7,891 nucleotides of DNA from Paenarthrobacter nitroguajacolicus JCM 14115. Its GTDB lineage: Bacteria > Actinomycetota > Actinomycetes > Actinomycetales > Micrococcaceae. The position numbers and the translations under genes are program-made. Under the pieces are notes generated by a model. It had not been told where the DNA came from. It saw only the letters and a list, made by a program, of their open reading frames with translations, and ran no database searches. Of this stretch, positions 1 through 7,891 are shown in pieces (within the stretch, counting starts at the first letter, position 1; each line of letters starts with the position of its first letter). The stretch covers positions 1 to 7,891 of the forward strand of contig BBFS01000142.1 of the NCBI GenBank assembly GCA_001313365.1, written 5' to 3'.

Positions 1-72
1 GGTGTGCGCGACGGCGTCGTCCGCTGTTTCAAACGCACGGCACCTTGCGCGGGCTGCGGCGCTGGCTGCGGC

Positions 73-1776
73 TCATGGCATTACCGAGGCGGGTTGAGCT
101 TGACTGCCTCGGGTGAGCGCGCGGTCATAGACGCACTCGCCCCCAATCCACGTCTGCGTCACCGCCGACCGGTGCAGCTCCTGCGCAGGGAGATCGAAGA
201 CGTTGAGGTCCAGTACGGCAAGGTCGGCGAGTTTTCCTGGTTCCAGCGTTCCCGTTTCCGTTTCCAAGTGTTGATCCACGCTGAGCCCTGCGTGTAGGCA
301 TCCAGGATCTGTTTGAGGCTGAGCTTTTGCGATTCCGGGCCGAGTGGGGGGGCAGGTCCTCCCCCCGGCGCTATGCGATTCACTGCGACGTGGATGGCCG
401 CAATCGGGTCCGCGGTGGAGACAGGCCAGTCGCTTCCGGCCACCAATCGGGCTCCTGCCGAAGCAAGCTCACCAAAGGGGTAATGCCTGTCCTCGGCGCC
501 GGCTCCAGGAACGGGAGGGTGAGGGTATCCATCTGTTCTTCATGGCAGGCCCAGAGGGCCTGGATGTTGGCCGCCGCATTCAGCCCGGCAAACCGTGGAA
601 CATCCTCGCTGCGGACCACCTGAAGGTGCGCCAGGTGGTGCCGGTTGTCGTTCGACCCGTTGCTGTCCCGCGCTGCCTCCAGCGCGTCCAAAGCATCCGT
701 CACGGCGCGGTCGCCGAGAGCATGGAAGTGAACCTGCATGCCGGAAGCATCTATCGCGGTGACGAATTCCTTCAGCTCCTCGGGCTCGAAGAATTCGATG
801 CCTCGGTTGTCCGTGTGGTGGCCGTGGTGATCGAGGTAGACGTGATGCATTGCGGCTGTGTAATTCTCTGCCACTCCGTCCACCATCACCTTCACGGTGT
901 TGGCGTTGAGCTGATGGTGGTCGAAGGAATCGGCCACCCTGTCCCGGCGTTGCGTGATTGCTTCCAGCTGGGCCAGTCCGGCTGTCCTGTCCCACCATTG
1001 GCATGCGGTGACCCGGACTTTCAAGTCTCCCGCCTTCGCCGCGTCCATGTAGACGTCCAGATGATCGGCATGTTCCCCCCCCTCGGGAATGGGAACCCAG
1101 GCGTCCTGCCAGGCCGTGATGCCCTGCGATAGCAGCAGTTGCTGGGAGGCGAGCAGGCTTGGTACGCCAACTCATACGGCACCGCTGGCTTGACCGCATT
1201 GAACAGGTCCATGGCTCCCTCATGAACTGTGCCTGCGGGCGTCCCGTCTTCTTCGCGTTCCAGCCGGCCGCCCTCAGGATCAGGTGTTTCCCCCCCGCCG
1301 ATTCCCGCCGCCTCAAACGCTGCAGTGTTGGCCCACGCGCGTGGTGGTCCCTGTTGACGAGGTAGACGGGCCGGTCCGGCACCACGGCGTCCAGAAGTTC
1401 CCGTGTTGGAGTGCCGCCCGGGAAAAAATCCATGGACCATCCAGCACCCAGGATCCAGTTCATCCGGGTTGTCGGCTGCGTAACGGGCAACCCTCGCCAC
1501 GGCTTCCTCTGCGCTGGTGGCCTCCGTCAGGTCGCACTGAAGCAATTCGATCCCGGCGAAGATGGGGGGGTGGATGTGGGCATCCTGGAAGCCCGGCACC
1601 ACCAGTTGCCCTTGCAGGTCCACCTTGCGGGTTTCCGGCGTGACCGAACCGTGAAGCTCGTCGGGTGTTCCGACGGCGATGATGCGGCCTTCGGCTATGG
1701 CAAGGTTTGCGCGCAGTGGGCCGGCGTCATTGCCGGTGTACACCCATCCGTTCTCAAACAAAATCTCGGCGTGCAT
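73..1776 (-). CDS. YtcJ-type metal-dependent amidohydrolase, frameshifted as given
   Basis: This is a cytoplasmic amidohydrolase-3 (YtcJ-like) enzyme of about 565 residues, the usual size for the family. Its substrate is unknown; the family cleaves amide or cyclic C-N bonds. The N-terminus (LFENGWVYTGND) is the small beta domain. DAHIHP near residue 65 carries the HxH metal ligands. KVMVDG (about 294) supplies the barrel lysine. VHFHALGDRAV (about 345) and HHLAHLQ supply further histidines, and VAGSDWPVS (about 447) supplies the Asp. The C-terminus LEPGKLADLAVLDLN is typical. The ATG at 1776 is preceded by AAAGGA at a good distance. The frame breaks five times: an extra base in the A6 run at 1423-1428, and single missing bases near 1340, 1153, 506 and 270. 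Correcting them restores FFPGGTPT, RDHHGAWANTAAF, QACLASQQLLL, PFLGAGAEDR and SAWINHLETE. It is divergent from tetR, its likely regulator. The family call is secure; the function is not. Confidence 0.88.
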
Positions 1777-1820
1777 GGTCGAGTCCTTTCGTGGGGGGGA
1801 AATTCAACTCTGCGAGACAC

Positions 1821-1848
1821 ACTATGAGCCGGATCACACTTAAGTCAA
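1821..1848 (-). promoter_or_regulatory. Predicted promoter of the amidohydrolase gene
   Basis: Reading leftward, TTGACT (1848-1843) is a 5/6 match to the -35 consensus. After a 16-base spacer, CATAGT (1826-1821) is a 4/6 match to the -10. A start near 1813 would give a leader of about 37 bases to the ATG at 1776. The -35 lies inside the 1844-1858 palindrome, so a bound TetR dimer would block it. The boxes are seen; promoter activity is inferred. Confidence 0.5.
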
Positions 1849-1858
1849 CAGTGTTGAC
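1844..1858. promoter_or_regulatory. Probable TetR operator, perfect 15-bp palindrome
   Basis: GTCAACAGTGTTGAC is a perfect inverted repeat of 7+1+7 bases in the gap between the divergent amidohydrolase and tetR genes. Its right half is partly repeated just downstream: CAGTGTTGACA (1849-1859) and CAATGCTGACA (1861-1871) match at 9 of 11 positions, 12 bases apart. This suggests a second, weaker half-site. On the plus strand it also contains a consensus -35 TTGACA (1854-1859), but no good -10 follows. Position and symmetry fit autoregulation plus repression of the amidohydrolase. Confidence 0.6.
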
Positions 1859-1890
1859 ATCAATGCTGACAAAGACTTTGACTGGTCCTT

Positions 1891-1899
1891 GAAAGGAGG
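1891..1899 (+). promoter_or_regulatory. Strong Shine-Dalgarno that decides the tetR start
   Basis: GAAAGGAGG is essentially a full complement of the 16S rRNA 3' end and sits 5 bases before the ATG at 1905. No other ATG nearby (1940, 1958) has a comparable site. It therefore marks 1905 as the likely true start of tetR, even though the frame from 1905 closes after 17 codons in the sequence as given. Confidence 0.65.
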
Positions 1900-1904
1900 A
1901 CGCC

Positions 1905-2649
1905 ATGAATCATGTAGTTGATAATCAACCCGGGAACGCATGGAAGGCGGACAACTGATGGTGCAGCCAGCACAGTCGACGGACCGCCGAACGCGCCTGG
2001 ACCCGGCCACCATCATTGACGCCGTCCTGCGGATTTCCAGCCAGGAGCTCGGGGGGGAACGGCTGACCGTGCGACGACTGGGACAGGAACTCGAGGTGGA
2101 CGCCACGGCCGTCTACCGCCACTTCCGGAACAGGGACGCAATCGTCAGGGCAGCACTGGACCAGTTGTTCCTGATGTCCGTTGATCGCACGCTGGCCACA
2201 GCACGCGACCAGGACTGGCGTGCCCGGCTGGAGGCCTACCTTGACGAACTCCTCAAAGCCTTCATGCAGCATCCCTCCCTGGGCAGCGAGTCGTTCGCTA
2301 CGGACACCTATGGCCCCCCGGCGAACTAAAGGCAATCGAGTTCGTCCTTCAATGCCTCACCGATGCCGGGCTGGCAGAGGACCGCGTGGTGCACTACTAC
2401 GCGGCCCTGGAAAGCTACACCCTTGCGCTCGGCGCCGGCATTGCGGTTGAAATCCAGCGGCTCCCGGACTCCGAGGGCCACGATCCTTGGCTCAACCCAC
2501 GGGTTTTCACACGTATCACCGGTCGCCCGCTCCTTGAAAAACACCACGCTGCACTGCAAAACCTCGACTCCCTCAAGGCGTTCCAGGCCGGTCTCTCGGC
2601 CATCCTGGACAGCGCCGAACGCGAGAGCAAGCAGCCACCTCAGGCCTGA
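1905..2649 (+). CDS. TetR/AcrR-family transcriptional regulator, frameshifted as given
   Basis: This is a one-component DNA-binding repressor. The N-terminal domain includes LTVRRLGQELEVDATAVYRHFRNRD, here cited as LTVRRLGQELEVD followed by ATAVYRHFRNRD, the classic TetR helix-turn-helix with its YRHF recognition-helix end. The helical C-terminal ligand domain runs to KQPPQA. Two frame problems exist. Near 2314-2319 the C6 run moves translation to a stop at 2329; two bases fewer, or one G more, joins DTYGP to GELKAIEFVLQCL and continues to 2649. Between 1925 and 1939 one missing base (for example G4 read as G3 near 1932) separates the ATG at 1905, which has the strong ribosome site, from the main frame. 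Without that correction, the ATG at 1940 or 1958 would be the start. Corrected length is about 245 residues, slightly long for TetR. It probably regulates the divergent amidohydrolase and perhaps the aldehyde dehydrogenase downstream. The ligand is unknown. Confidence 0.85.
1917..1929. promoter_or_regulatory. Second perfect palindrome at the 5' end of tetR
   Basis: GTTGATAATCAAC is a perfect 6+1+6 inverted repeat just inside the proposed tetR coding start. It shares GTTGA/TCAAC half-site character with the 1844-1858 palindrome but has different spacing. It could be a second operator or an unrelated regulator's site; chance within coding sequence is also possible. Confidence 0.3.
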
Positions 2650-2707
2650 CGGGGGGGTGCTGGCGCGACCGGCCGCCTGACCAACAACGCAACCCACCTT
2701 CCCCCGC

Positions 2708-2730
2708 ACGACGCCACCATCCGGCGTCGT
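2708..2730 (+). terminator. Hairpin between tetR and the aldehyde dehydrogenase gene
   Basis: ACGACGCC and GGCGTCGT form a perfect 8-bp GC-rich stem around a 7-base loop, about 60 bases after the tetR stop and 53 before the next ATG. No U-tract follows. It may be a weak or Rho-assisted terminator, or an attenuating structure that lowers read-through into the dehydrogenase gene. Confidence 0.35.
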
Positions 2731-2782
2731 CCATTCAGCACTGCCCGGACAGCGACGCCCGGCAGGGAAAGCACGGCACCTC

Positions 2783-4281
2783 ATGCATCAGTTCATCAAC
2801 GGAAAACTGCTCTCCGGAACCTCTGGCAGCAGCTCGATGTCATCAATCCGGCCACCTCGGAGGTAGTGGAAACGGTGGGACTCGCTTCACTTGCGGATCT
2901 GGAGTCGGCAGTGGCGGCGGCCCGCAGCGCCTTCCCGTCATGGTCCCGCACCGCGCCGGGTGAACGCGCCGGGATCCTGCAGAAATTCGCCCGCATCATC
3001 GAAGATCGTGCGGAGGAATTCGCCCGGGTTGAGAGTTCCCAGACGGGCAAACCGCTGCGGCTGACCCGGGAGTTCGACGTCCCCCCCGGCACCATCGACA
3101 ACATCGATTTCTTCGCAGGTGCCGCACGGCACCTCGAGGGCAAGGCCACCGCCGAGTATTCGCCCCCCCAACACACTTCCTCCATACGCCGGGAATCCAT
3201 CGGTGTGGTGGGATCCATCGCGCCCTGGAACTACCCCCCCTGCAAATGGCCGCATGGAAGATCCTTCCCGCCATTGCCGCAGGCAACACAATCGTTCTCA
3301 AGCCTGCCGAGATCACTCCGTTGACGTCGCTGATGTTCGCACAAGCGCTCAGTGACGCCGGACTGCCCGACGGCGTGGTGAACGTGGTGGTGGGCGACGG
3401 CGCCACGGTTGGGGGGGCAGCGCTCATGCGGCACCCCCCCGACGTGGACATGGTCTCTTTCACGGGGTCCACTGCGGTTGGCCGCACAGTTTTGGAGCCG
3501 CGGCCGTCAACTCGAAGCGCGTGCACCTCGAATTGGGCGGCAAGGCACCCTTCGTGGTTTTCGACGACGCCAATCTGGACGCCGCCGTTCATGGGGGGGC
3601 CGTGGCCGGTTCAATGATCAACACCGGCCAGGATTGCACGGCAGCCACCAGGGCTATCGTGCACCGCAGCGTGTATGCGGAGTTCGTAGCGAAGGTGGCC
3701 GCCCGCTTTGATGGGCTCGTCCTGGGCATCCCCGGGGGGGATACCAACGCCGATCTCGGCCCCCTCGTATCCTTCAAGCAGCGTGACCACGTAGCCGGGA
3801 TGGTGGACCGCGCCCGTACTTACAGCAAGGTGATGGCAGGCGGATACGCCCCCCCTACGGACGAGGGCCTGGAAAATGGCGCCTTCTACCGACCCACACT
3901 GGTTGTTGACGCGGCGCCGGACTCTGAAATTGTGAAGGACGAGGTGTTCGGCCCGGTCCTGGTGGTCCTCCCGTTCGAAACGGACGACGAAGCTATCCAC
4001 CTGGCCAACGACACCGTCTACGGACTGGCCGCCTCGGCCTGGACGAACAACCTCCAGCGGGCCTTGCGGGCAACCCGCGAGATCCAGGCCGGCTGCGTGT
4101 GGGTCAACGACCACGTTCCGATCGTCTCCGAGATGCCCCACGGCGGCTTCAAGCAATCCGGGTTCGGCAAGGACATGTCCGCTACTCCTTTGAGGAGTAC
4201 ACCCAGGTGAAGCACGTGATGTTCGAGTTGGAAGGCGTCACCCGGAAAGACTGGCACCGGACCATCTTCAAACTGCGCTGA
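2783..4281 (+). CDS. Aldehyde dehydrogenase, PatD/gamma-aminobutyraldehyde type, frameshifted as given
   Basis: This is an NAD(P)-dependent aldehyde dehydrogenase of about 500 residues. It oxidises an aldehyde, probably an amino-aldehyde, to the acid through a Cys thiohemiacetal. Motifs in order: MHQFINGKL start, IAPWNYP with the oxyanion Asn, SFTGSTAVG at the cofactor site, HLELGGKAP with the general-base Glu (about 249), [11 protein letters not shown] with the nucleophile Cys (about 285), and KDEVFGPV. The C-terminus [18 protein letters not shown] then [15 protein letters not shown] closely follows, from memory, E. coli PatD (putrescine catabolism). Frame breaks: a base missing near 2833, a C7 at 3234-3240 that should be C5 (WNYPLQMAAW), a G missing near 3495 ([13 protein letters not shown]), and a C missing near 4180 (KDMSRYSFEE). 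Several 7-mers add single Pro or Gly residues in frame. The exact substrate is inferred; the family is certain. Confidence 0.92.
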
Positions 4282-4287
4282 CCCTTC

Positions 4288-4333
4288 GCGTTGTGGGGCC
4301 TGCGTTGTGGGGCCCTCGCGTTGCGGGGCCTGC
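4288..4333. repeat. Three imperfect tandem copies of a 14-16-base GC-rich unit
   Basis: GCGTTGTGGGGCCT (4288-4301), GCGTTGTGGGGCCCTC (4302-4317) and GCGTTGCGGGGCCTGC (4318-4333) lie head to tail directly after the dehydrogenase stop. The third copy overlaps the 5' arm of the terminator-like hairpin that follows. G4 runs in this repeat were not lengthened to G7, unlike many in the genes. Confidence 0.6.
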
Positions 4334-4375
4334 TTTGCGCGCTTCCGCCCGATCTAGGGCAGCAGAGCGGGCCTC
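4325..4375. terminator. Probable bidirectional terminator between convergent genes
   Basis: GGCCTGCTTTGC (4327-4338) pairs with GCAGAGCGGGCC (4362-4373) over 12 positions, including two G-U pairs. An inner GCCC/GGGC stem closes around GATCTA. The 3' arm touches the EamA stop codon (4374-4376), and the 5' arm lies about 45 bases after the dehydrogenase stop, so the structure could serve both convergent transcripts. There is no U-tract, as is common in high-GC actinobacteria. Confidence 0.5.
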
Positions 4376-5267
4376 ACAACGGGTGTTTCGGGACGGATCT
4401 TCCTCCGGCGCCGAGCACTGCGGTGGCAACTCCGAGGAGCAGGATCAATCCGCCCACGATTTCGGTCAAGGTAGGAATCTCGTTCAGGACCAGCCACGCG
4501 GCCGTCATCCCCCCCACCACGGGAACCAAAAGCGTGAAGGGCACGACGTCAGAACTCGGTACAGCGATAACAAGCGGTTCCAAATGCCGTATCCAATCAG
4601 GGACGCAAACACGGCCGTGTAGATCGCACTCAGGATGGTGGCCGGCTGCAGGTCCGTGAGCGTTGCCAACACTATGTCAGGCCCATCCACTGCCAGCGAT
4701 AAGCCAGCCAACGGAAGCGGCACCACGGCACCGGACCACACCACCAACCCCAAGCCGGAAGCGGCCTTCGTGTGCCGGGCCACCACATTCCCGATCGCCC
4801 ACGATAACGCCGCGGCAAGAACGATCATGAGCGGCAGAACCGGAGCCACGGCACTTCGCCCCAAGGCCACCACTGCCAAGCCAGCGATGCCCAGCGCCAC
4901 ACCCGCCAATTGGCGCCTACTCGGCCTCTCGCCAGGAATCTCGCCGCAAGCAAGATGGTGAACAGCACTTGTGCCTGCAGCACCAGCGATGCCAGCTGCC
5001 GGCATGCCAAGCGCCATGCCCAGATACAGGAGGCCGAATTGACCGGCACTCATGAAGAGCCCGACGCGACAATCGCCTTCCAGCCCACGTCTGGTTTGCG
5101 GATGAACAGGATGAAGGGAAACACCACCAACAAGAAGCGCATGGCGACGAAGAGCAGGGGGGGCGGGACTTCCCTGCCGTTCGTGTGCAGACCGAGATCG
5201 ATGGCGACGAAGTTAATGCCCCAAAGCACAGCAACCATGAGGGCAAGGCAGAGTGGCGAAGGTTCAC
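4374..5267 (-). CDS. EamA/DMT-family exporter, frameshifted as given
   Basis: This is an inner-membrane drug/metabolite transporter with ten predicted helices in two EamA repeats, about 298 residues, of the type that exports amino-acid-related metabolites. The first repeat begins at LMVAVLWGINFVAIDLGL. The second includes SWAIGNVVARHTKAASG and ends with VGGLILLLGVATAVLG. The proposed start is GTG at 5267, giving MNLRHSALALMVAVLWG once a base missing near 5244 is restored. Further missing bases lie near 5060 (ASGLFMSAGQFG), 4995 (GMPA joined to LASLVLQAQ), 4933 (RFLGERPSRRQ) and 4558 (SLYPSSDVVPF). C7 at 4509-4515 and G7 at 5157-5163 each add one residue in frame (VVGGMT, VPPPLL). The gene is divergent from a LysR gene 72 bases away, which probably controls it. 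The true substrate cannot be told. Confidence 0.87.
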
Positions 5268-5339
5268 AAGTACACTCTGGCCCGTTTTTGGTTGAAGCAC
5301 CAGCGTTGAATTCGACATTTAACAGCGTAGATTTGCTTC
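5268..5339. promoter_or_regulatory. Shared control region between the exporter and lysR genes
   Basis: This 72-base divergent gap should carry both promoters and the LysR site. GTTGAATTCGAC (5305-5316) is an imperfect dyad with a perfect TGAATTCG-like core, and GTTGAA recurs 14 bases upstream (5291-5296). That spacing would put the two half-sites on nearly one helix face plus a few bases. GTAGAT at 5328-5333 is a possible -10-like element. No Shine-Dalgarno is obvious before the lysR ATG at 5340. Assignments are tentative. Confidence 0.4.
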
Positions 5340-6268
5340 ATGATCGACATCTCAGCGCTTAGGGCCTTGGTCGCAGTGGAGCAGCACGGCTCAGTGGTGG
5401 CGGCAGCGGACGTTATGGGCTTCAGCCTTCGGCAATTTCGCAGCAAATCAAGAAACTTGAGAAGCAGACCGGCGTCACTGTGCTGGAACGCAGCGGCCGT
5501 GGTGTGCTCCTTACAGAGCGTGGCTTGGCTCTTGCAGGTTATGGCCGGCGGATCATGGGTGAGCTCGAGGAACTGCAAGCCACCCTGCTCTCCGATCCTG
5601 CAAAGCCTTCCGGACTCCTGAGGCTCGTCGCGTTTTCCACGGCTTGCAGGGGGGGCTTGGTGGGGGCCCATGCTCGGGCGCATCGCAGCTGCCCACCCGA
5701 CTCTGGGCATCACCGTACTGGCTGAGGATCCGCGGGAGGCGGTGCAAAGAGTCGCCTCTGGCGAGGCCGAACTCGCGGTGGTACATAACTGGAATTCGGT
5801 ACCCTTGGTGATCCCGGAGAACCTGGTGCATGAGGACCTCTGCATCGACCAAGCCGACGTCCTCGTCAACAGCACCCACGCGCTGGCGGCGAGCACCGCC
5901 GTCGAGCCTGAAGACCTTCTGGACGAAACGTGGATCAGCACCCCCCCGGCGGGAGCCATCTGCAACGAAGCACTCCTGCAGATCTTCGCTGGACTGGGCA
6001 AGGTCCCCCCCGACATCCGTATTTACGACCCCGACTTCTCCACCCACATCGCCATGGTGGAACAAGGTGTGGCCGTGGCACTCGTACCGAGCTCGGAAGG
6101 CCTCCCCCCCTTCCTGAGGGAGTCGTGGCCATCCCGGTGATCCGTCCGGTCCAACAACGGTCCGTTGGTGTTGTCTACCGCAAAACGATGACAGCCAGTC
6201 CCAACATTCGACTTGCCGTGAACCTGCTGCGCGATATAGCGGCTGAGCTACCGCTGCCGCGAAGCTGA
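5340..6268 (+). CDS. LysR-family transcriptional regulator, frameshifted as given
   Basis: This is a LysR-type DNA-binding regulator of about 305 residues, the normal family size. The N-terminal winged helix-turn-helix reads MIDISALRALVAVEQHGSVV, then FSPSAISQQIKKLEKQTG (recognition helix) and LERSGRGVLLTERG. A linker helix follows, then a periplasmic-binding-like effector domain starting at LRLVAFSTACRG and ending with AVNLLRDIAAELPLPRS. Three frame breaks occur: a C missing near 5427 (GFSL should be GFSPSAIS), G5 at 5662-5666 that should be G4 (LVGPMLGRI), and a G missing near 6119 (PFLRGVVAIPV). In-frame 7-mers at 5649, 5941, 6005 and 6104 each add one Gly or Pro. Divergent placement makes the EamA exporter the obvious target, in the manner of other LysR/exporter pairs. 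The effector is unknown. Confidence 0.88.
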
Positions 6269-6317
6269 CCAGGAGCGATCAACGTCACACAGGGGAACAT
6301 TCGACGCCCGGAAGGTG

Positions 6318-6336
6318 TTAGCTTAGGCTAACCTTA
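6318..6336. promoter_or_regulatory. IdeR/DtxR iron box
   Basis: TTAGCTTAGGCTAACCTTA matches the known 19-bp actinobacterial IdeR/DtxR consensus TTAGGTTAGGCTAACCTAA at 17 of 19 positions, with the central TTAGGCTAACC core intact. It lies 58 bases before the GTG at 6395, and TAGGCT within it could act as a -10. The only gene starting nearby in the right direction is the unknown one at 6395. That gene is therefore expected to be repressed when Fe(II) is plentiful. The match is seen; regulation is inferred from the family. Confidence 0.8.
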
Positions 6337-6394
6337 CCTACCAGCGCCGCCCGGAGCGCGCGACTGTCGAAACTCTTGAAGGGGGGGCCCACCT

Positions 6395-6799
6395 GTGGAA
6401 GCAATCCTCTTTCCCACGGACATGAACCACCACCACACCTATGGCTTGGTCAGTTACATCATGATCGACGACGGCTTTATCCGAGCGCGCACAACCGCCG
6501 GGATCCGTACGCGCTTCCTGCGTTCGATGTCCGCGGTCAATGGGTCTACCCCCAGCCGCTACAACGAATACCTGGCTCCGCAGTTGCCGGTGTACATGTT
6601 CGACGGCGAATTCCTCATCGCAACCGGGCATGGCGAAGAAGCGGCCGGCCTGCCGGTGTTCGAGATCCGCTGCATGTGCATGCCGCAGCTGGCTTACGGG
6701 GGGCGCGGCACCTTGAAGTGCGTCAGCCTGGCGTCCTGGCCGTCGAGCTCAGCCCATGACTTTTCTGTTTCCATTACCGTCAACGCACTCGTTGGGTAA
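6395..6799 (+). CDS. Unknown protein behind an iron box, 3' end uncertain
   Basis: I do not recognise this protein. The frame opens with GTG at 6395, preceded by GAAGGGG-type Shine-Dalgarno sequence (the G run is 7 as given), and stays open for 134 codons. Codon use is convincingly coding with high third-position GC through about residue 100. The N-terminus has DMNHHHTYG and the later part has RCMCMPQ, both plausible metal ligands, which fits an iron-controlled gene. There is no signal peptide or membrane helix. From 6694 the frame lies antisense to the end of the phosphatase gene, so the last 35 residues are doubtful. If the G6 run at 6698-6703 were G5, the frame would instead end at 6716 after LAYGGAAP. 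Because other genes here are frameshifted, part of the sequence may be in the wrong frame. Function is not assigned. Confidence 0.5.
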   Translation: MEAILFPTDMNHHHTYGLVSYIMIDDGFIRARTTAGIRTRFLRSMSAVNGSTPSRYNEYLAPQLPVYMFDGEFLIATGHGEEAAGLPVFEIRCMCMPQLAYGGRGTLKCVSLASWPSSSAHDFSVSITVNALVG

Positions 6800-7228
6800 C
6801 GGTTAGCAGCATCCATGTAAGCATCGTGGTCCGAATCGCGGGAAGCCAGGTGCATGGCAAGATCCTGAACGCCGGGCATATGCGAGATGACCATCAACGT
6901 GGTCACGGTATCGGGTACGTGGTTGATCACCGTCAACATACGGTTGGCTGAGGCGGAGTACAAGCCATCCTCCAGTTTGGGAGTCGGCGCCTTGTCCCCC
7001 AACTCATCGCACACCCAAGTGCAGGTCTGACGAGTCCTCAACGCTGACGAACAAAGGATGAAGTCGGGCACCACACCATGCTTGAGCAACCACTTCCCCC
7101 GCCAACGGGGGGGCCTCCCGATGCCCACGCTCCTCCAAGGGGGGGCGCTCATGATCAGGCACTCCCATGGGCCAATCAGCTTTGGCATGCCGCATGATCA
7201 CCAGGCGTTTGATGTGATGGTCACTCAT
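6694..7228 (-). CDS. SixA-like histidine phosphatase (phosphoglycerate mutase superfamily)
   Basis: This is a small cytoplasmic histidine phosphatase of about 175 residues, the SixA size class; E. coli SixA removes phosphate from a histidine phosphotransfer domain. The start reads MSDHHIKRLVIMRHAKADWP, where RHA holds the nucleophilic His. Then come DHERP-LEERGHREAP, ILCSSALRTRQTC with its conserved Arg, and MVISHMPGVQDLA with the second catalytic His. The end is ARLTHFKVPRPP. One frame break exists: C5 at 7096-7100 should be C4, giving LAGKWLLKHGVVPDF. G7 runs at 7107 and 7139 each add a Pro in frame. The ATG at 7228 has only a weak AGGG-type site upstream. The 3' end overlaps the convergent unknown gene. 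The true substrate is unknown. Confidence 0.88.
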
Positions 7229-7302
7229 AACCCAACCCTATCTGCCGCAGAGCCCAGCGGCTTCCTGCGGGCCGCCGTCACCAACTTTGAATTCGGGGGG
7301 GC

Positions 7303-7339
7303 ACCCTGGACACGCCGTGCGGCCGGGCGTGTCCAGGGT
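7303..7339. terminator. Perfect 14-bp hairpin, terminator-like
   Basis: ACCCTGGACACGCC (7303-7316) and its exact complement (7326-7339) enclose a 9-base loop. No U-tract follows on either strand. It lies 75 bases upstream of the phosphatase start, so it could end an unseen transcript, shape the phosphatase leader, or act as a binding site. Confidence 0.45.
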
Positions 7340-7504
7340 ATTTGGCGGCCAAAGTGGGTGGTGGAGGCACACGGTTTCCTCGAAATTAAACGCCGAAAGG
7401 CGGCATATCCCGATAGCGCCATTGTCGCGCGAAGGATGAGCGCAGGCGCAAAGGGATCGTCCCGCTAAAGCGGAAGCGTCCGCCGCTGGATCACCCCGCG
7501 AACA

Positions 7505-7551: not shown

Positions 7552-7891
7552 TTAGATCGAGTATTCAGGTGCTGCCCAAACGATAACTTCGGGGGTGCTC
7601 GTAGAAACGGTAGCCTTGGCCGCGGACCGTGCGGACCGTGTTCGCGAGGCGGCAAGCTTGGAACGGAGGCGGCGGATGTGCACGTCGATGGTGCGCTCGT
7701 TGGGCACCTCTTCGGCGTTGCGCCACAGGCCCTCAAGGAGTTCGTCGCGGCCCACGGTGCGGGTGCCGTTCTCGACCAGGTAGTTGAGGAGCTCGAATTC
7801 CTTGAACGTCAGGTTCAGCGATTCGCCATCGAGGTGCACTTCGCGGCGGGCGAGGTCGATCAGGACGCCGGACGGACGGGCTTCCTGCTGG
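7552..7891 (-). CDS. OmpR/PhoB-type response regulator, C-terminal part, cut by window end
   Basis: Only the DNA-binding winged-helix domain is in the window; the N-terminus lies beyond the right edge. LNLTFKEFELLNYLVENG is the start of the domain, followed by VGRDELLEGLWR. NERTIDVHIRRLRSKL is the recognition helix, and VRTVRGQGYRFYEHP is the beta-hairpin wing. The protein ends EVIVWAAPEYSI. Two frame breaks are present: a C missing near 7653 (RSKLGRLANTVRTVRG) and G5 at 7591-7595 that should be G4 (EHPEVIVW). The partner kinase is not visible. A SixA-like phosphatase lies downstream on the same strand, but two hairpins and 323 bases separate them, so a functional link is only a possibility. 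Confidence 0.87.
   Translation of the reverse strand, partial: QQEARPSGVLIDLARREVHLDGESLNLTFKEFELLNYLVENGTRTVGRDELLEGLWRNAEEVPNERTIDVHIRRLRSKLAASRTRSARSAAKATVSTSTPEVIVWAAPEYSI

What the first reader, a model, noticed from the sequence alone, without database searches (positions are those of the whole stretch)
346..7301. Sharp excess of G/C homopolymers of exactly seven
By eye I count 25 G or C runs of 7 or more: 24 of length 7 and one of 8. Only about three runs have length 6. A GC-rich random sequence of this size would give only a handful of 7-mers, and 6-mers should outnumber 7-mers. In conserved motifs the 7-mer replaces an expected 4-mer and adds exactly one Gly or Pro. Examples are HPPDVDM for HPDVDM (3434-3440), VHGGAVAG for VHGAVAG (3593-3599), EFDVPPGT for EFDVPGT (3081-3087), and ERPPLEERG in the phosphatase (7139-7145). 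Other G4/C4 runs are untouched (4136, 4748, 5218, 6028). A base-calling or consensus artefact is most likely. A slippage-prone mutator lineage is the biological alternative.
Basis: partly seen in the sequence, partly recalled or inferred. Interest (0 to 1): 0.7.

Follow-up and report, generated by a model that had tools for sequence, protein, structure and literature searches.

The report
Inflated G/C runs: sequencing artefact
In this stretch of soil-bacterium DNA most short runs of four Gs or Cs are written as exactly seven, which is almost certainly an error of the sequencing consensus and not biology; it matters only as a warning about this kind of draft data.

Summary
In detail: 24 G/C runs of exactly 7, one C8, three 6-mers, where about 0.26 seven-mers are expected. 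The window is apparently a whole 7,891-bp public contig, syntenic at about 89% with a Paenarthrobacter MAG. None of nine aligned relatives has a run of 7 at these sites. Of 38 runs inferred to be true G4/C4, 21 read 7, 11 read 4, five read 5 and one reads 6; six of nine true 5-mers read 6, 7 or 8; A/T runs of 4 or more are unchanged, 16 of 16; G/C 3-mers are unchanged, 120 of 122. The attractor is length 7, not +3: two well-supported 5-mers become 7 and break frame, and two 7-mers are noncoding. The contig also has 22 short deletions. No genome piece or viral stretch that I examined shows the same peak. Best reading: a long-read consensus error, probably in base-specific run-length decoding with a false optimum at 7 for G/C. 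The artefact is well supported; the step is inferred. A slippage-prone lineage is very unlikely. Not a real feature.

The parts
346..352 (.). G7; relatives support 5 (9 of 9), frame-breaking, in amidohydrolase gene
361..366 (.). C6; relatives support 5 (9 of 9)
1075..1082 (.). C8; relatives support 5 (8 of 9; they read CGCCC-like)
1290..1296 (.). C7; 4 supported by 6 of 7 relatives scored
1564..1570 (.). G7; 4 supported by 9 of 9
1793..1799 (.). G7, noncoding; 4 (5 relatives) or 3 (4 relatives)
2051..2057 (.). G7 in TetR-family gene; 4 supported by 9 of 9
2314..2319 (.). C6 in TetR-family gene; 4 supported by 9 of 9; +2 shifts the frame
2651..2657 (.). G7, noncoding; pre-length poorly determined (1 relative scored, 5)
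2701..2705 (.). C5, noncoding; 4 supported by 5 of 8 relatives scored, L001 among them
3081..3087 (.). C7, EFDVPPGT for EFDVPGT; 4 supported by 9 of 9
3163..3169 (.). C7, YSPPQHTS for YSPQHTS; 4 supported by 9 of 9
3234..3240 (.). C7; 5 supported by 9 of 9; +2 breaks the dehydrogenase frame after NYP
3411..3417 (.). G7, VGGAAL for VGAAL; 4 supported by 9 of 9
3434..3440 (.). C7, HPPDVDM for HPDVDM; 4 supported by 9 of 9
3593..3599 (.). G7, VHGGAVAG for VHGAVAG; 9 of 9 relatives have GGCG in a four-base space
3734..3740 (.). G7, PGGD for PGD; 4 supported by 7 of 8 relatives scored
3849..3855 (.). C7, YAPPTD for YAPTD; 4 supported by 7 of 7 relatives scored
4509..4515 (.). C7 in EamA-like transporter gene; 4 supported by 9 of 9
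5157..5163 (.). G7 in EamA-like transporter gene; 4 supported by 9 of 9
5649..5655 (.). G7 in LysR gene; 4 supported by 9 of 9
5662..5666 (.). G5 in LysR gene; 4 supported by 6 of 6 relatives scored
5941..5947 (.). C7 in LysR gene; 4 supported by 9 of 9
6005..6011 (.). C7 in LysR gene; 4 supported by 9 of 9
6104..6110 (.). C7 in LysR gene; 4 supported by 4 of 4 scored, 5 relatives below the score limit
6381..6387 (.). G7 at the 5' end of a small ORF; 4 supported by 9 of 9
6549..6553 (.). C5; 4 supported by 9 of 9
6698..6703 (.). G6; pre-length uncertain (5 in 3 of 5 scored)
7096..7100 (.). C5; 4 (5 relatives) or 3 (3 relatives)
7107..7113 (.). G7 in SixA-like gene; 4 supported by 6 of 8 scored (one relative, L008, has six Gs)
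7139..7145 (.). G7 in SixA-like gene; 4 supported by 8 of 9
7295..7301 (.). G7; pre-length poorly determined (1 relative scored, 4)
7591..7595 (.). G5 in response-regulator gene; 4 supported by 9 of 9

Best explanation
The excess is a sequencing-consensus artefact. The contig looks like an under-polished long-read (probably nanopore) assembly of an ordinary Arthrobacter/Paenarthrobacter chromosome segment. Shown by comparison with relatives: G/C runs that should be 4 or 5 long are longer here, most often exactly 7, in genes and between genes, for G and for C, while A/T runs and nearly all G/C runs of 1-3 agree with relatives. Inferred: the step at fault is run-length decoding, in which the consensus program picks, separately for each base, the true length that makes the reads' observed lengths most likely, using a confusion table trained elsewhere. 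Runs of seven G or C are rare in the genomes I looked at, so that row of such a table may be poorly sampled and come to resemble the row for four. With no prior on length, many fours are then decoded as sevens. My confidence of 0.93 is for an artefact of some kind; I put about 0.6 on the run-length-decoding step in particular.
For: Nine syntenic relatives have no run of 7 at these sites, and L001-L009 have no G/C run above 6 in 20.6 kb each. Of 38 inferred true G/C 4-mers (two further runs undecided and dropped) 27 are lengthened, against 0 of 13 A/T 4-mers (Fisher P 5e-6); in the L001 pairing 15 of 23 G/C 4-mers change against 2 of 122 3-mers. G/C runs of 4 or more total 49 against about 55 in the Markov model, so lengths were moved, not runs added. 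5-mers at 346 and 3234 become 7, so 7 is the attractor. Noncoding 7-mers at 1793 and 2651 and frame-breaking +1/+2 changes in genes speak against selection for frame. 22 short gaps stand against 8 or more of 9 relatives. No extra Pro/Gly at seven dehydrogenase motifs among the 239 other proteins fetched, in those where a motif pattern matched (80, 61, 162, 12, 25, 3 and 9; these are the best 120 listed of two large searches). A hand-set toy of prior-free length decoding with a mis-filled row 7 decoded true 4 as 4/5/6/7 at 24/18/3/54%, against 29/13/3/55% here. Passages read: Flye drafts dominated by insertions (P. aeruginosa 14,394 insertions, 439 deletions; 538 insertions after Racon; PMC8011154); overprediction of homopolymer length in polished nanopore-only genomes (PMC7500977); MarginPolish picks the length of greatest likelihood per base, and the Shasta authors call such a model sensitive to calibration errors (PMC7483855); longer C and G homopolymers are read worse than A and T (PMC8486125).
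Against: No reads, coverage, platform or assembler are known for this contig, so platform and step are inferred. Published nanopore error profiles mostly run the other way: long runs are shortened (PMC8486125), and one assembly study found mainly deletions after runs of four to five, more at A/T than at G/C (PMC12007338); PMC7500977 saw no clear pattern and shows polishing adding A and T runs. None of the passages read describes a jump from 4 to exactly 7. At several sites (for example 3593 and 3849) relatives have an interrupted run such as GGCG, so the true length of 4 rests on an assumed substitution. No second record with the same spectrum was found (partial searches). The toy's parameters were chosen by hand and its newer-read setting fits less well: 346 of 400 true fours at 7, 2 at 5. 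That a training genome is poor in G7/C7 was not tested (searches failed).
Confidence: 0.93

Rival explanations
1. Still an artefact (a share of the 0.93 above), but made at the read level (a base caller, a flow-based chemistry, or one uncorrected read) rather than in consensus length decoding.
For: Short deletions outside long runs look like residual read error. [quoted passage not shown] PMC8011154 speculates that base callers may overfit particular lengths.
Against: A read-level effect should give a broad spread of lengths; here 21 of 27 lengthened 4-mers have the same length, 7, which suggests a discrete decoding choice. Flow-based chemistries would not obviously spare A/T runs (16 of 16 unchanged).
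Confidence: 0.3
2. A slippage-prone mutator lineage has really lengthened its G/C runs of four.
For: The changes are at real homopolymers, and most are +3, which keeps reading frame.
Against: Slippage is usually single-step, grows with run length and acts on A/T as well (established knowledge, not tested here). Here A/T runs are unchanged 16 of 16, G/C 3-mers 120 of 122, and the mode is a three-base jump. Noncoding sites also read exactly 7 and coding sites carry frame-breaking +1/+2. The window's ORFs are only fragments of the L001 ORFs for five genes: amidohydrolase, TetR, dehydrogenase, exporter and LysR. 61 congeneric genomes show 0-56 exact G7/C7 each.
Confidence: 0.02
3. The 7-mers are functional elements, such as phase-variable tracts or G-quadruplex-like sites.
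For: Runs of seven or more G/C can be phase-variable in some bacteria (recalled).
Against: Several fall within conserved enzyme motifs, they are both G and C, there are 24 in 7.9 kb, and none is shared with the nine aligned relatives.
Confidence: 0.005

Closest known systems
Homopolymer-length overprediction in nanopore-only assemblies (PMC7500977, passages read)
   Same: Consensus runs longer than supported; frame damage across many genes.
   Different: That paper found no clear pattern and shows A and T runs being added; here there is a sharp single target length of 7, restricted to G/C.
Insertion-dominated Flye draft assemblies (PMC8011154, passages with Tables 1-3 read)
   Same: Insertions far outnumber deletions before polishing, in a GC-rich genome among others.
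   Different: Lengths and bases of the insertions are not given in the passages read. The tally adds up to 81 inserted G/C bases in 7.9 kb, denser than 14,394 over a P. aeruginosa genome (its size, some 6-7 Mb, is recalled).
Maximum-likelihood run-length decoding with base-specific confusion tables (MarginPolish, PMC7483855, passages read)
   Same: Works per base, picks one discrete length, states no prior in the passages read; a similar model is called sensitive to calibration.
   Different: That this contig went through such a program is not known. A comparable table in Flye is recalled from memory only.

Membership tests
Long-read consensus homopolymer error | Length differences from close relatives sit at homopolymers | tested here: met
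   27 of 31 insertions called against 8 or more of 9 relatives lie in or beside G/C runs of 5 or more; the other four are at 61, 65, 7323 and 7477. The 22 deletions are mostly at doublets or single bases
Long-read consensus homopolymer error | Ignores reading frame and gene boundaries | tested here: met
   Noncoding 7-mers at 1793 and 2651; frame-breaking changes at 346, 2314, 3234
Long-read consensus homopolymer error | Reads disagree with the consensus length | not testable with these tools
   No reads are held; no genome is held for the window
Base-specific run-length decoding error | One base class hit, one discrete wrong length | tested here: met
   G/C only; 21 of 27 lengthened 4-mers at 7, the other six at 5 or 6
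Base-specific run-length decoding error | Contig was produced by such a program | not testable with these tools
   No assembly metadata
Slippage mutator lineage | All bases affected, effect rising with run length | tested here: not met
   A/T runs of 4-6 unchanged, 16 of 16; G/C lengthened in 27 of 38 fours and 6 of 9 fives, no rise
Slippage mutator lineage | Mostly single-unit steps | tested here: not met
   Mode is +3; +1 in 5 of 27 lengthened 4-mers
Phase-variable tract | Tract conserved at orthologous sites | tested here: not met
   No run of 7 at these sites in nine relatives

The most novel reading that the evidence does not exclude
A real lineage in which G/C runs of four are expanded to seven in one step by an unknown process that ignores A/T runs and shorter G/C runs.
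Probability: 0.015. Interest if true: 0.85.

Novelty: not a real feature. Interest (0 to 1): 0.15.

Why it matters
It does not reveal biology. It does show a clean, checkable error signature (G/C runs of four written as seven, A/T spared) that adds single Pro or Gly residues to conserved proteins without always breaking frame, so frame checks alone would miss many of the errors. A simple length-spectrum test, more 7-mers than 6-mers, would flag such contigs before their proteins enter databases; the altered dehydrogenase fragment is already in one.

Tried and rejected
Looked for a nearer relative: with window 3521-4200 as query, 150 genomes drawn from a larger genus group gave nothing closer than the 89% MAG (next 87%), so no same-species comparison was possible. 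Three genomes stood out (G257, G487, G428); the eight pieces of them that I read have 0 to 5 seven-mers each and no peak at 7, while some have runs of 10 or more. Other genomes with matches were not read, bar one piece each of G289 and G190 (3 and 4 seven-mers against 9 and 21 six-mers). None of the 120 viral stretches had five or more 7-mers at over twice its 6-mers. One search ran before the loci were visible and was repeated in part. Neighbouring base and G versus C show no evident difference between changed and unchanged 4-mers (32 sites, no test made); order along the contig gives P 0.66 in a runs test. The inserted-base sum of 75 printed came from a list typed by hand and is wrong; the tally gives 81. 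The dehydrogenase hit P0124 (497 aa) was checked as a possible second affected contig; its extra residues are an earlier start. In the toy, a well-specified length table and an old table on new reads did not give the 7 peak for true fours. Paper searches turned up no title, abstract or passage that I saw describing a 4-to-7 G/C jump; only passages of five papers were read.
Full report
WHAT IS THERE. The window has 13, 8, 3, 24 and 1 G/C runs of length 4, 5, 6, 7 and 8. In 90 fetched loci of related and other actinobacteria (1.56 Mb, some overlapping) the same classes number 11,520, 2,808, 380, 52 and 7, a smooth fall. That rate predicts 0.26 seven-mers in the window. Across 61 congeneric genomes exact G7 or C7 runs number 0 to 56 per genome. 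The total number of G/C runs of 4 or more in the window, 49, is near the Markov expectation of about 55, so existing runs were lengthened and few if any new ones were added.

WHERE IT COMES FROM. The protein search lists the window's own dehydrogenase fragment on a contig of 7,891 bases, so the window is apparently a whole public contig. No genome is held for it. The gene order is an amidohydrolase (minus strand), a TetR-family regulator, a gamma-aminobutyraldehyde dehydrogenase, an EamA-like exporter (minus), a LysR-type regulator, a small ORF, a SixA-like phosphatase (minus) and the end of an OmpR-type response regulator (minus) (names by best family match, several below the curated cut-off because the ORFs are fragments). 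It is syntenic with Paenarthrobacter sp. RL58_bin.064 (L001) at about 89% over 1-7385 plus the right end, and with eight further Arthrobacter/Paenarthrobacter loci at 80-84% over most of its length. A draw of 150 genomes of the genus, searched with window 3521-4200, gave nothing nearer.

WHAT CHANGED. In a MAFFT alignment with nine relatives no relative has a run of 7 at any of the sites; L008 has six Gs at 7107, and the alignment around 2651, 6698 and 7295 is poor. Counting only runs with matching flanks against L001, G/C 4-mers read 4, 5, 6, 7 in the window in 8, 3, 1 and 11 cases; 5-mers read 5 and 7 once each; 3-mers are kept in 120 of 122; A/T 4-mers are kept in 9 of 9. Against L003, L002 and L005 the pattern is the same with smaller counts (4 to 7 in 7, 7 and 6), except that one 3-mer of L003 and of L002 reads 7, presumably the site at 1793. 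I then varied the length of each run of 4 or more and asked which length best fits each relative. For G/C the result is 4 to 7 in 21, 4 to 4 in 11, 4 to 5 in 5, 4 to 6 in 1, 5 to 5 in 3, 5 to 6 in 2, 5 to 7 in 3, 5 to 8 in 1, and 2 undecided. For A/T all 16 are unchanged. The weak cases are 2651 and 7295 (one relative each), 6104 (4 of 9 scored), 6698, 7096 and 1793. The 5-to-7 cases at 346 and 3234 are supported by all nine relatives.

WHY IT IS NOT BIOLOGY. The target is a length, 7, not an increment of three, because 5-mers also end at 7 and thereby break frame. Seven-mers at 1793 and 2651 lie outside the L001 ORFs, so keeping frame does not explain the number. G and C runs are both hit (14 and 10), while A/T runs and shorter G/C runs are spared. 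Extra Pro or Gly residues fall in conserved dehydrogenase motifs; among the other 239 proteins fetched (the best listed of two searches), none carries an extra residue where a motif pattern matched (80, 61, 162, 12, 25, 3 and 9 proteins for the seven motifs). The same contig has 22 short gaps where at least 8 of 9 relatives have a base, mostly outside long runs, a second kind of error. For five genes the window's ORFs are only fragments of the L001 ORFs of 565, 234, 492, 321 and 305 aa, as in a poor consensus. Flanking bases show no evident difference between changed and unchanged 4-mers, and their order along the contig is random (runs test P 0.66).

HOW IT LIKELY AROSE. The passages I read describe the ingredients. 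MarginPolish chooses, for each base, the run length that maximises the likelihood of the observed lengths from a table normalised per true length, and the Shasta authors left a similar model off by default as sensitive to calibration errors (PMC7483855). A nanopore-only study found overprediction of homopolymer length despite most reads supporting the right length, and suggested polishing tools had not kept pace with base callers (PMC7500977). Homopolish tables show Flye drafts dominated by insertions, which fell from 14,394 to 538 after Racon in P. aeruginosa (PMC8011154). Longer C and G homopolymers are read worse than A and T (PMC8486125). That Flye uses a base-specific homopolymer table is my recollection and comes from no call. 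My proposal is that the row for true length 7 of G/C, rarely seen in training, resembled the row for 4, so that prior-free decoding sent many fours to seven. A toy with hand-set parameters gave 94, 72, 12 and 216 of 400 true fours decoded as 4, 5, 6 and 7 (and 3 of 400 true threes as 7); with a well-specified table only 1 of 400 fours went to 7. This shows the mechanism can work, not that it did. With the newer-read setting the same toy gave 346 of 400 at 7 and 2 at 5, so the match to the window depends on the settings.

AGAINST. I have no reads and no metadata. Most published nanopore error is shortening (PMC8486125), and one study of assemblies found mainly deletions at runs of four to five, more at A/T than G/C (PMC12007338). 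I did not find a second record with the same peak: the pattern search of 396 genomes, the pieces of outlying genomes and 120 viral stretches gave none, although these searches were partial. At sites such as 3593 and 3849 the relatives have an interrupted run, so the true four is inferred.

VERDICT. It is an artefact, of low biological interest, with a distinctive and easily screened signature.

Noticed in passing
window 270, 499, 1158, 1338, 1458, 1917, 2833, 3497, 4182, 4558, 4934, 5067, 5429, 6475 and others: 22 short gaps (1-3 columns) where 8 or more of 9 relatives have a base, many turning a doublet into a single base.
   Followed up: partly
window 7268-7465: Intergenic-looking stretch that matches three separate places in L007, with an inverted-repeat-like GGACACGCC/GGCGTGTCC look; perhaps a dispersed repeat of the genus.
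   Followed up: no
window 4291-4331: Three near-identical tandem copies of TTG(T/C)GGGGCC between the dehydrogenase and the exporter; alignment to relatives is poor here.
   Followed up: no
window 61-71: Insertion of about 11 bases (GCTG-type) absent from at least 8 of 9 relatives, at the far end of the amidohydrolase gene.
   Followed up: no
G257, G487, G428 (loci L215-L222): Three unnamed actinobacterial genomes with unusually many paired G7 tracts (246, 79 and 31 pattern hits); some pieces of G257 and G487 include G/C runs of 10 or more, a different spectrum from the window.
   Followed up: partly
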